From Sutcliffiella horikoshii DSM 8719 (GTDB taxonomy: Bacteria > Bacillota > Bacilli > Bacillales > Bacillaceae_I): a stretch of 58,106 nt of DNA. Position numbers and translations under genes: made by a program. Below the pieces are notes generated by a model. The model saw only the letters and a list, made by a program, of their open reading frames with translations, did not search any database and was not told the DNA's origin. This document shows, one piece after another, positions 131 through 55,712 of the stretch (positions are counted from its first letter, which is position 1; the number at the start of each line of letters is the position of its first letter). The stretch covers positions 1-58,106 of the forward strand of contig LQXN01000048.1 in the NCBI GenBank assembly GCA_001648575.1, in the 5' to 3' direction.

Positions 131-235
131 GAATAGCGGATAAAACGGAAAAGTCGCGGATAAAACGAAAAGTTAGCGGATAAAACGGAAAAGTCGCGGA
201 TAAAACCAATAGTTAGCGGATAGAACCGAAATTAT
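131..235. repeat. Five-copy 20-bp periodic array (GCGGATAAAAC)
   Basis: The motif GCGGATAAAAC, or GCGGATAGAAC in the last copy, starts at 136, 156, 176, 196 and 216, an exact 20-bp period. The linkers alternate between an AAGTC type and an AGTTA type, so the underlying repeat may be a 40-bp dimer. It lies in the gap between the rRNA operon terminator and gin. No open frame with a ribosome binding site overlaps it. Function unknown. Confidence 0.85.
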
Positions 236-539
236 CCAGATCTAAAGCAAAGGTTTAGCGTGATTTGCCCATTTGAAGACGGACTTAATCTCCATAAGGA
301 TGTCACCCCCAAGGATATGAAGACAATTTGCAGGAGTTTTCAGCATCTAAAAAGCCGTCACTGTCTACATGCAGACCTTCCCCCTATTAAAAATTGCAGG
401 TTTCCAAGCTCATCTTCGCCTTCAATAAGGTTTGACACTAAAAAACAGCCCATCTTTTTTATTTCAAGACAAACACAGACTAGTAGGCCTTACATACACT
501 AGATGTAGGAGATTGGTAGGCTGTTATTTTACTAAAGTA
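236..539. other. Intergenic stretch with no recognisable gene
   Basis: Two short open frames cross this stretch but have no ribosome binding site or recognisable similarity. In B. subtilis the gene after the rRNA operon is csfB (gin), so this appears to be spacer. I see no further structure apart from separated AACAGCC and GGCTGTT segments near 450 and 520. Confidence 0.5.
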
Positions 540-6287: not shown

Positions 6288-6414
6288 CTGTAGATTTACG
6301 TTCCAGGTGTTCGCTTTCCGCGGGGCGGTGCTTGAGCCTCCTCACTTCGTTGCGGGGTCTCAAGTCTACCGCTACCTCCCGCTGGAGTCTCACACCTTGC
6401 ACTACAATCTACAG
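6288..6414 (+). repeat. Dispersed palindrome-ended repeat, copy R1
   Basis: A copy of the roughly 125-bp intergenic repeat family. The ends CTGTAGATT and AATCTACAG are inverted repeats, extended outside by AACTCC and GGAGTT. The core holds GCTTTCCGCGGGGCGG, GAGCCTCCTC and GCGGGGTCTCAAG. Orientation + is defined by GAGCCTCCTC reading forward. It sits directly after the yabA terminator. Open frames crossing it are not genes. Confidence 0.85.
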
Positions 6415-21720: not shown

Positions 21721-21848
21721 CTGTTGATTGGAGCAAAAGGCGAAGACTCCTACGGGGGATAGCGACATTCTTGAGGCCCCGCAGGGCGTAGCCCGAGGAG
21801 ACTCAAGGTCGCCCCACGGAAAGCGAAGCCGGTTGCGGAAATCAACAG
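21721..21848 (-). repeat. Dispersed palindrome-ended repeat, copy R4
   Basis: Reverse-oriented copy with ends CTGTTGATT and AATCAACAG. The core GGCGAAGACTCCTACGGGGG, GCCCCGCAGGGCGTAGCCCGAGG and CCCCACGGAAAGCG is nearly the exact reverse complement of R6 (35103-35231), so R4 and R6 are one subfamily. It lies inside the usual glmU-prs operon. Confidence 0.85.
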
Positions 21849-34962: not shown

Positions 34963-35059
34963 GATTTGGTAGAGTACAGGGGGATTGTAGAACAGTTGAT
35001 TTCCGTTCCAGGCGCTTCGCTTGCCTGCGGGCGGTCCGTGAGCCTCCTCGGCTTCCAAG

Positions 35060-35274
35060 GCCACTGAAAAAGTACAATATTTTAGTTATCTGATTCATAC
35101 CGCTGTTGATTTCCGCAAACGGCTGCGCTTTCCGCGGGGCGACCTTGAGCCTCCTCGGGCTGCGCCCTGCGGGGTCTCAAGATTGTCGCTATCCCCCCGC
35201 AGGAGTCTTCGCCTATTGCTACAATCAACAGCTAGAAAATTAAAATAAGATTAGTTATTGGGTTTTTCAGTGGC
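35060..35274 (+). mobile_element. 215-bp MITE-like element with GCCACTGAAAAA terminal repeats
   Basis: Its ends are GCCACTGAAAAA (35060-35071) and TTTTTCAGTGGC (35263-35274), an exact 12-bp inverted repeat. Between them lie AT-rich arms of about 30 bp and a complete repeat of the R4 subfamily (R6). It encodes no transposase, so it would have to be moved in trans. It interrupts the R5 repeat. The family of the missing transposase cannot be decided here; an IS1182-like origin is a guess from memory. Confidence 0.7.
35103..35231 (+). repeat. Dispersed palindrome-ended repeat, copy R6 (cargo of the MITE-like element)
   Basis: Ends CTGTTGATT and AATCAACAG. Core GCTTTCCGCGGGGCGACC, GAGCCTCCTCGGGCTGCGC, GCGGGGTCTCAAG and CCCCGCAGGAGTCTTCGCC is the reverse complement of R4 with few changes. 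Confidence 0.85.
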
Positions 35275-35403
35275 TTCGCCTGCGGGGTCTCCCCTGTCCC
35301 TTCTTCCCGCCTTCCACTGCAATCAACTGGTTTTTGCATCTTAATTTAATATTGGCTGTTTTTTACAAAGTTAGTTACTATAGAAAAATTTATACAAATG
35401 AGT

Positions 35404-35521
35404 GAATTGAAGCGGAAGTCACTCGACTCCGGCGGGAGGTAGCGGTAGACTTGAGACCCCGCAACGAAGTGAGGAGGCTCAAGCACCGCCCCGCGTAAAG
35501 CGAGTGACTGCAGCGAAAAGG
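35404..35521 (-). repeat. Dispersed palindrome-ended repeat, copy R7
   Basis: Reverse-oriented copy: GGAGGTAGCGGTAGACTTGA, GACCCCGCAACGAAGTGAGG, AGGCTCAAGCACCGCCCCGC. The GCAACGAAGTGAGG segment is shared with R1. The terminal inverted repeat is degraded, so the boundaries are approximate. Confidence 0.75.
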
Positions 35522-35544
35522 AACGGTCAAACTTTATATCCATT

Positions 35545-45440: not shown

Positions 45441-45570
45441 TGGTTGATTTCCGTTCCAGGCGCTTCGCTTTCCTGCGGGCGGTCCGGGAGCCTCCTCGGC
45501 TACGCCTGCGGGGTCTCCCATGTCCCTTCCTCCCGCGGGAGTCTGCGCGCCTTCCACTACAATCAACTGG
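45441..45570 (+). repeat. Dispersed palindrome-ended repeat, copy R8
   Basis: Intact relative of the split R5: GGTTGATTTCCGTTCCAGGC, CTGCGGGCGGTCCGGGAGCC, GCGGGGTCTCCC, GTCTGCGCGCCTTCCACTAC and AATCAACTGG. It shows what R5 looked like before the insertion. Confidence 0.85.
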
Positions 45571-45631: not shown

Positions 45632-45759
45632 CTGTTGACTGGAGTGCAGGGGGTGAGACTCCTGCGGGAGGTAGCGGTAGGTTGAGACCCCTGAAGCGTT
45701 GTGAGGAGGCTCAACCACACGCCCCGCGGAAAGCGAACCCCCGAAACGAAAGGAAACAG
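45632..45759 (-). repeat. Dispersed palindrome-ended repeat, copy R9
   Basis: Reverse-oriented copy: CTGTTGACTGGAGTGC, GGGAGGTAGCGGTAGGTTGA, GACCCCTGAAGCGTTGTGAG, GCCCCGCGGAAAGCGAA. It is closest to R3 and R2 by the GACCCCTGAAGCG / CCGAAGCGTTGTAAGG segments. It faces R8 across 61 bases, after the ftsH terminator. The rest of the 45376-45883 gap holds no gene. Confidence 0.82.
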
Positions 45760-55551: not shown

Positions 55552-55712
55552 TACGCCTGTTGAGCATAGTGGAAGGCGCGAAGACGTTTGCGGAAATCAA
55601 GAGCGGTATGATACGGATTGCTAAAATAATGTACTTTTTCAGTGGCGTTGGCTTATCCGATGAGGCTTCCGGACCGCCCTTCGGATAAGCGGAGCGCCTG
55701 TAACTAAGATCA
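55552..55712 (-). repeat. Degenerate composite repeat R11 with one MITE end
   Basis: 55585-55646 matches the reverse complement of 35060-35121, one end of the MITE-like element, including the exact TTTTTCAGTGGC terminus (55635-55646). The repeat it should carry is deleted to its two ends (TGTTGAGCATAGTGGAAGGC and GCGGAAATCAAGAG). Beyond the terminus lie GAGGCTTCCGGACCGCCC and GCGGAGCGCCTG…GATCAACAG, part of another repeat. No gene is seen in 55534-55878. Confidence 0.65.

What the first reader, a model, noticed from the sequence alone, without database searches (positions are those of the whole stretch)
35060..35274. MITE-like element with GCCACTGAAAAA ends nested inside another repeat
The sequence between 35060 and 35274 has exact 12-bp terminal inverted repeats and carries a full copy (R6) of the dispersed repeat family. 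It splits a second repeat (R5) whose uninterrupted relative is present at 45441-45570. So this insertion can be read directly by comparing two places in the same window. It suggests that the whole repeat family travels, or once travelled, as cargo of a non-autonomous transposon. A TTC on each side is the only hint of a target duplication.
Basis: partly seen in the sequence, partly recalled or inferred. Interest (0 to 1): 0.7.

Follow-up and report, generated by a model that had tools for sequence, protein, structure and literature searches.

The report
Hairpin-loop-targeting IS1182-type mini-transposon
A 215-base piece of DNA with no genes has jumped into the tip of a hairpin-forming repeat, and it belongs to a set of jumping elements that seem to find their landing sites by DNA shape and copy either the loop or the whole hairpin when they land.

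Summary
35060-35274 is a 215-bp MITE: its ends occur 46 times in this genome (reversed-pattern control 2), 22 of them as 11 inverted pairs. The yabR-tRNA gap was found in 16 of 16 Sutcliffiella genomes; R5 is uninterrupted in 6, and this insertion is seen only here. Intact copies have about 15-bp ends and 8-10-bp target duplications; TTC/TTC is erosion. Five identical 1862-bp IS1182-family elements with the same ends exist in a congener. The landing site is the tip loop of a palindrome, an R repeat or an intrinsic terminator (37 of 51 IS targets; sliding controls 0-3 of 51). Two more MITE families with other ends carry R too: D duplicates a whole terminator hairpin (30 of 33), as do 22 of 30 autonomous relatives; C shows no duplication, like IS1272. 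Loop and hairpin modes fall into two transposase groups. Hairpin targeting by IS1182 is known; these duplication modes, MITEs and nesting look like new variants.

The parts
   Evidence: read; similar hairpins after the same gene in the gaps
34994..35056 (+). left half of repeat R5 (target palindrome), ending in the eroded tip/target duplication GGCTTCC
   Evidence: (97% to 45443-45501); uninterrupted orthologues
35057..35059 (+). AAG, outer 3 nt of the conserved 15-bp left end
35060..35274 (+). 215-bp MITE (family B), no transposase
35060..35071 (+). left terminal inverted repeat core
35105..35231 (+). internal R repeat (R6), carried by the MITE; also the kind of palindrome that other copies land in
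35263..35274 (-). right terminal inverted repeat core (outer CTN lost)
35275..35328 (+). right half of R5, beginning with eroded TTCGCC of the tip
45442..45569 (+). uninterrupted R repeat of the R5 type (paralogous empty site)
55578..55651 (-). half-deleted second copy of the MITE, one end only, embedded in an R repeat
   Evidence: (I5)
21721..21846 (-). R repeat of the MITE-cargo type without the MITE ends

Best explanation
The element is a MITE derived from, and mobilised in trans by, an IS1182-family insertion sequence. Shown: it shares its ends and a left-end segment (including the R repeat) with a 1862-bp IS in the same genus; among 16 genus genomes it is in R5 only here; and many intact siblings are flanked by 8-10-bp direct repeats that lie at the apical loop of a palindrome (R repeat tip or intrinsic terminator). 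Inferred: the transposase recognises the hairpin or cruciform form of the target and joins the element's 3' ends on either side of the loop, so that repair duplicates the loop and leaves both stem arms outside the element. A sister transposase group makes the joins at the feet of the stem and duplicates the whole hairpin. Landing in hairpin tips is probably nearly harmless to the host, because the stem arms (or a full second terminator) remain. Because the MITEs carry R palindromes, an insertion supplies a new landing site, which explains the nesting.
For: Ends and copy number: (46 exact pairs in 9 of 16 genus genomes, reversed control 0). Autonomous partner: 5 identical copies; 4 with perfect 8-bp duplication, the fifth 9 bp; NF033551, 358.9 bits, cut-off 270. 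Empty sites: window locus; two further loci. Target duplications: 41 of 85 against 2.4% permuted; 53 of the 72 IS relatives that could be scored have at least 12 of 14 end bases matching and a duplication of at least 8 bp. Hairpin tip: (37 of 51 non-R IS targets; slid by 4-12 nt 0-3 of 51; flanking positions 21 of 413; right flanks swapped 27.5%). R tip: (26 of 29 mapped insertions at model positions 60-64, one at 68, two at 47-48). Nesting: (16 of 85 inside another MITE; two controls 0 and 0). Hairpin-duplicating sister. Tree: (44 loop against 19 hairpin rows, one change, 98/96).
Against: No transposition was observed. No B-type transposase was found in this genome: the D-type ones are remnants and the multi-copy one at contig ends is another type, so mobility in G000 today is doubtful. 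Only 5 of 11 non-R MITE targets passed the strict hairpin test, against 27.9% for swapped flanks; decay of old terminators may be one reason. For R targets the swapped-flank control also scores 81%, so folding is not informative there. 44 of 85 elements lack a clear 8-bp duplication at the fixed offset. 19 of 72 scored IS relatives did not pass. The window copy itself has no intact duplication. Recognition of DNA structure rather than of a regional or selective feature is inferred.
Confidence: 0.82

Rival explanations
1. Selection, not targeting: the element inserts broadly, and only insertions in dispensable spots such as terminator loops and repeats survive.
For: Terminators and R repeats are safe places. 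Right flanks swapped among IS targets still pass in 27.5%, so A/T-rich terminator composition explains part of the signal.
Against: Placement is precise to a few bases: sliding by 4-12 nt drops 37 of 51 to 0-3 of 51. In the sister family the duplication runs from foot to foot of the hairpin: all 30 duplications found fold as hairpins, which selection would hardly produce.
Confidence: 0.12
2. Sequence targeting: the transposase recognises a motif in the R repeat, and terminators are hit because they resemble it.
For: 30 of the 41 MITEs with a good duplication lie in R repeats, nearly all at one place in R.
Against: I saw by eye no common sequence in the loops of terminator targets; IS relatives in Bacteroidota and Lachnospiraceae, where I did not look for dispersed R, hit terminator loops too.
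Confidence: 0.08
3. Whole R family is decayed MITE cargo: every R copy once had transposon ends.
For: R core present in three MITE families and in 14 of 53 insertion sequences; some R copies without ends keep MITE-like inner flanks such as ccgct...ctaga.
Against: 25 of 44 full R copies show neither pair of B or D ends, and C ends were not found in this genome at the spacing searched; several R subtypes have other flanks; R is absent from the shorter IS relatives, so it was probably gained by the longer ones.
Confidence: 0.2
4. R5 and the inner unit are one composite repeat, and the split look is chance.
For: None found.
Against: Six sister genomes carry R5 uninterrupted in the same gap and orientation; the inner unit occurs with many other flanks.
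Confidence: 0.01

Closest known systems
IS1272 / TnSha1 (IS1182 family)
   Same: Same transposase family as the partner's, as named in the papers and by NCBIfam for the partner; target is a stem-loop, often a terminator (PMC4923244, passages read; PMC5678879, abstract and sections 22, 24 and part 1 of 29 read).
   Different: Reported to delete or replace the stem-loop without target duplication. Family B here duplicates the loop, family D the whole stem-loop: pathways c and b that PMC5678879 drew as alternatives in its Fig 13 (legend and discussion read). An IS (L292, L293) and a MITE family with GAGGCTGGGACA ends and no duplication found are in the genus too and look IS1272-like; the likeness of the end sequence is recalled.
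IS1182 family in general
   Same: PMC4923244 and PMC5678879 quote Siguier et al. 2015 that some members target palindromic sequences. A variable duplication length (0-60) is my recall of ISfinder, not seen here.
   Different: I found no paper describing loop duplication, foot-to-foot hairpin duplication, or MITEs of this family (search listings).
Insertion sequences that target REP palindromes (ISPsy8, ISPa11, ISPpu9, ISPpu10, ISRm22, ISRm19)
   Same: A dispersed palindromic repeat serves as landing site (PMC1525189, abstract read).
   Different: Other organisms and other named IS; here the mobile element itself carries a copy of the palindrome it lands in.
BOX, RUP and SPRITE repeats of Streptococcus pneumoniae
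   Same: Small repeats that insert into one another (PMC10969869, passages read).
   Different: Different repeats; relation to RUP-type elements not tested here.
bcr1 and other Bacillus stem-loop repeat families (e.g. Bhal-1)
   Same: Dispersed stem-loop repeats in Bacillaceae (PMC2267715, passages read).
   Different: Identity of R with any named family was not tested; Rfam gave only tRNAs and 16S rRNA in the window at gathering thresholds.
Group IIC introns
   Same: Insert next to terminator stem-loops (recalled, no call).
   Different: Retroelements with ribozymes; not compared here.

Membership tests
MITE | short, no transposase gene, terminal inverted repeats | tested here: met
   215 bp, exact 12-bp ends (about 15 in intact siblings)
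MITE | many dispersed copies with conserved ends | tested here: met
   46 exact ends in G000; 46 exact pairs in 9 of 16 genus genomes
MITE | target-site duplication | tested here: inconclusive
   window copy: eroded; family: 41 of 85 with at least 7/8
MITE | shares ends with an autonomous element | tested here: met
   1862-bp IS in G013
MITE | empty site in a relative | tested here: met
   6 of 16 genomes with uninterrupted R5 in the same orientation
IS1182 family (autonomous partner, not the window element) | transposase over NCBIfam cut-off NF033551 | tested here: met
   358.9 bits, cut-off 270; D-type 477 bits
IS1182 family (autonomous partner, not the window element) | palindromic target (reported for some members) | tested here: met
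   B-type, 37 of 51 strict; D-type, 22 of 30
IS1272-type stem-loop replacement | stem-loop lost, no target duplication | tested here: not met
   B and D families keep the stem and duplicate the loop or the whole hairpin: (family C may meet it)
REP/REPIN with RAYT tyrosine transposase | linked RAYT gene and its motif | not tested
   no search made

The most novel reading that the evidence does not exclude
IS1182-family transposases measure DNA hairpins. One group joins across the tip loop and duplicates 8-10 bp, one joins at the two feet and duplicates the complete terminator (19-42 bp), and the IS1272-like group removes the hairpin. The length of the target duplication is then set by the shape of the target, not by a fixed stagger. 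In one genus, MITEs of all three kinds carry the R palindrome, so a jump lays down a new, host-safe landing pad, giving nested families that multiply terminators across a genome.
Probability: 0.45. Interest if true: 0.8.

Novelty: new variant of a known kind. Interest (0 to 1): 0.62.

Why it matters
Many cut-and-paste transposons leave a duplication of fixed length. Here two related transposase groups leave a loop-sized or a hairpin-sized duplication, both drawn as possibilities in a paper on IS1272 but not shown in the papers I could read. That makes the question of how a DDE transposase reads DNA structure directly testable. It also explains a class of nested palindromic repeats in Bacillaceae, the duplication of intact terminators, and how a mobile element could multiply at little cost to its host.

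Tried and rejected
TTC as target duplication: rejected. R and MITE as one unit: rejected. A B-type transposase in G000: none found; the contig-end fragments match another type, the 466-aa open frame at C67:28445, and the two D-type copies are broken. The first hairpin score (bp enclosing the centre) was too lenient, with swapped flanks scoring 82-84%; it was replaced by the stricter test (at least 6 bp, loop at most 12 nt, centred within 2 nt, -8 kcal/mol or lower). An empty-site test for the IS1272-like IS copy in G002 failed because its flank matches in no other genus genome. Rfam: only tRNAs and 16S in the window. Rows dropped: of 80 transposase relatives, 74 were given to the end finder, 72 could be scored, 53 passed. 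Of 30 D-type loci, 22 passed; L341, L348, L350, L351, L353, L358, L360 and L363 did not or had no room. Of 33 D MITEs, 3 had no duplication by the script; two of these, L322 and L330, look like decayed hairpin copies by eye. Of 10 C MITEs, L407 has no right flank and L403 only 11 bases of it, so the absence of a duplication rests on 8. The 85 elements come from loci that I had fetched (84 from the genus, one, L066, from another genus of the family), include orthologous pairs (e.g. L095 and L128), and are not all independent. Several flank pairs that do not match each other (L098, L105, L108, L117, L122) may be recombinants and were not followed.

Full report
WHAT WAS CHECKED. The window is contig C51 of a 4.68-Mb draft genome in 67 contigs. 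Its genus is Sutcliffiella: contig G001:C4 has the length of the S. horikoshii plasmid NZ_CP082921.1 with a 99.8% transposase match, and G012:C6 has the length of NZ_RXZI01000006.1. The segment 35060-35274 has exact 12-bp inverted ends. In the genome the 12-mer occurs 46 times against 2 for its reversed form, and 22 of the 46 form 11 inverted pairs 214-274 bp apart. Across 16 genus genomes the exact 14-bp ends at the right spacing occur in 46 places in 9 genomes, control 0.

TRUE BORDERS. Across 85 elements collected from fetched loci (84 of the genus, one from another genus of the family), the three bases outside the 12-mer are GAG or AAG on the left in 65 and CTC or CTT on the right in 71, so the end is about 15 bp. 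Just outside, 41 of 85 have an 8-bp direct repeat with at least 7 matches at one fixed offset; permuted flank pairs reach this in 2.4%. In the window copy this duplication is eroded. Sister genomes read GGCTTCGCC at the tip, whereas the window reads GGCTTCC before AAG and TTCGCC after the right end (compared by eye). The TTC on each side is a coincidence of this erosion.

INSERTION PROVED BY ORTHOLOGY. The yabR-tRNA gap was found in 16 of 16 genus genomes. R5 is uninterrupted and in the same orientation in G001, G003, G006, G011, G012 and G013. An R repeat lies in the opposite orientation in G007 and G008. An R of the MITE-cargo type without the ends lies there in G002 and G015. No R motif was seen in G004, G005 (contig ends after 194 bases), G009 and G014. 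G010 has its own separate MITE in the gap. Only G000 has this one.

THE AUTONOMOUS PARTNER. G013 has five 1862-bp elements, identical to each other, with AGGCCACTGAAAAA ends and a 484-aa transposase that scores 358.9 bits to the IS1182-family model NF033551, cut-off 270. Four of the five have a perfect 8-bp duplication, the fifth 9 bp. All five lie in R-type palindromes by eye. The IS carries an R repeat between its left end and the transposase, as does the MITE, so the MITE looks like an internal-deletion derivative. Among 53 related IS with clear ends, 14 have an R-model hit in the left non-coding region (three of them weak, E 0.0087), all 1863-1909 bp long; the other 39, among them every IS of 1802 bp or less, have none.

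WHERE IT LANDS. Of 80 transposase relatives, 74 were given to an end-and-duplication finder, 72 could be scored, and 53 have at least 12 of 14 matching end bases with a duplication of at least 8 bp. They come from Bacillota and Bacteroidota. With the duplication restored to one copy, 37 of 51 non-R targets place it in the apical loop of a stable hairpin by a strict rule. Sliding the centre by 4 to 12 nt gives 0-3 of 51, positions 100-400 bp away give 21 of 413, and swapping right flanks gives 27.5%. Both R targets of IS passed. For the MITEs, 30 of the 41 with a good duplication lie in R repeats and 11 elsewhere; 27 of 30 and 5 of 11 pass. For R targets the swapped control also passes in 81% because R palindromes are alike, so that figure says nothing by itself; for the 11 others it passes in 27.9%. 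Within R, 26 of 29 mapped insertions fall at model positions 60-64, one at 68 and two at 47-48.

A SISTER FAMILY THAT COPIES THE WHOLE HAIRPIN. While classifying R repeats (44 full copies in 458 kb), I found a second MITE family, D, 206-225 bp, with ends CAGACTGTTGACAAA / CAGTGTGTAGACAAA and an R core. Exact pairs: 92 in 4 of 16 genus genomes, control 0. Of 33 distinct copies examined, 30 are flanked by direct duplications of 19-33 bp (median 24), and all 30 duplications fold as hairpins; letter-shuffled duplications pass the same rule in 274 of 1500. An autonomous partner in G001 has a perfect 30-bp hairpin duplication and scores 477 bits to NF033551. Of 30 relatives fetched from the order, 22 have a hairpin duplication of 19-42 bp, 21 of them perfect. 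On a tree of 67 transposases the 44 loop-duplicating and 19 hairpin-duplicating rows fall on two sides of one branch, 98/96.

A THIRD FAMILY WITHOUT DUPLICATION. An IS type with GAGGCTGGGACA ends and no duplication found is present in G001 and G002. MITEs with these ends, 314-336 bp, occur in 10 places in 2 of 16 genus genomes, control 0, at the spacing searched; 10 of 10 have an R-model hit inside, and none of the 8 with both flanks has a direct repeat; several flanks read A-run, element, T-run. At the one locus where sisters could be compared, G014 has a C MITE where 12 of 12 other sister genomes shown have a terminator. This fits the IS1272 replacement mode, but no base-level empty site was available. 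The likeness of these ends to IS1272 is recalled.

ORTHOLOGOUS SITES FOR THE D MODE AND A LAYERED CASE. At one G000 locus (C64, about 74.7-75.2 kb) the terminator after a gene stands on both sides of a D MITE, and a B MITE sits in the loop of the second copy; of 13 sister genomes shown, 12 have a plain terminator and G014 the C MITE (by eye). At another gene, G000 and G005 each have a D MITE and G009 a broken D-type IS, each flanked on both sides by its own terminator sequence, while the other 13 of 15 sister genomes have one plain terminator (by eye).

NESTING. Of the 85 B MITEs, 16 lie between the ends of another MITE (13 D, 3 B); two pattern controls gave 0 and 0. The R core carried by these families is thus a landing site as well as cargo.

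HOW IT PROBABLY WORKS. Established knowledge: DDE transposases join the element's 3' ends to two target strands, and the stagger between the joins becomes the duplication. PMC5678879 (discussion and Fig 13 legend read) drew three outcomes for a hairpin target: replacement, whole stem-loop duplication, loop duplication. The present data fit loop duplication for B and whole stem-loop duplication for D, and do not contradict replacement for C. That the enzyme sees a cruciform or single-stranded hairpin is inferred. The likely benefit is that both stem arms, or a second intact terminator, remain.

WHAT IS KNOWN. IS1272 and TnSha1 target terminator hairpins and delete them (PMC4923244 passages; PMC5678879 abstract and sections 22, 24 and part 1 of section 29). 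REP palindromes are targets of other IS (PMC1525189 abstract). A 2024 review of prokaryotic MITEs has no mention of IS1182 (PMC10969869, term search). Nine searches of the open-access library listed no paper that I could recognise, from titles, abstract starts and the passages read, as describing loop- or hairpin-duplicating IS1182 elements or MITEs of this kind; subscription papers and ISfinder pages were not available.

LIMITS. Whole genomes could be searched but not scanned freely. The 85-element set is what I fetched, not a census. No B-type transposase was found in G000. R's own way of moving is unresolved.

Noticed in passing
L305-L334, e.g. G000:C67:15773-15993: Second MITE family (D) with different ends and an R core, flanked by duplicated complete terminator hairpins; 50 exact copies in this genome.
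   Followed up: yes
L400-L409, e.g. G014:C1:4215261-4215594: Third MITE family (C), 314-336 bp, GAGGCTGGGACA ends, R core in 10 of 10, no direct repeat in 8 of 8 with both flanks; one sits where sister genomes have a terminator.
   Followed up: partly
G000:C64 about 74700-75195 (L368): Layers: a D MITE between two copies of a terminator, and a B MITE in the loop of one copy; 12 of 13 sister genomes shown have one plain terminator.
   Followed up: partly
yabR-tRNA gap, L221 and L222: The R repeat lies in opposite orientation at the same place in G007 and G008; inversion or independent insertion.
   Followed up: no
same gene's terminator in G000, G005, G009 (L384, L395, L396): Three genus members carry D-type insertions at the terminator of the same gene, apparently independent events.
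   Followed up: partly
left non-coding region of IS in L150-L214: The 12 left regions I printed hold strong hairpins before the transposase, several terminator-like with T-runs, perhaps shielding it from outside transcription.
   Followed up: no
G000 contig ends C31, C49, C53, C57, C4 start, C67 start: Fragments of one further IS1182-like transposase (E type, open at C67:28445, below the NF033551 cut-off) sit at contig ends, so this multi-copy element breaks the assembly.
   Followed up: partly
window 134-253: Run of a 20-bp tandem repeat, TAGCGGATAAAACGGAAAAG-like.
   Followed up: no
window 35401-35524, 6290-6414, 45632-45757: Other R subtypes with different outer flanks and no known ends.
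   Followed up: no
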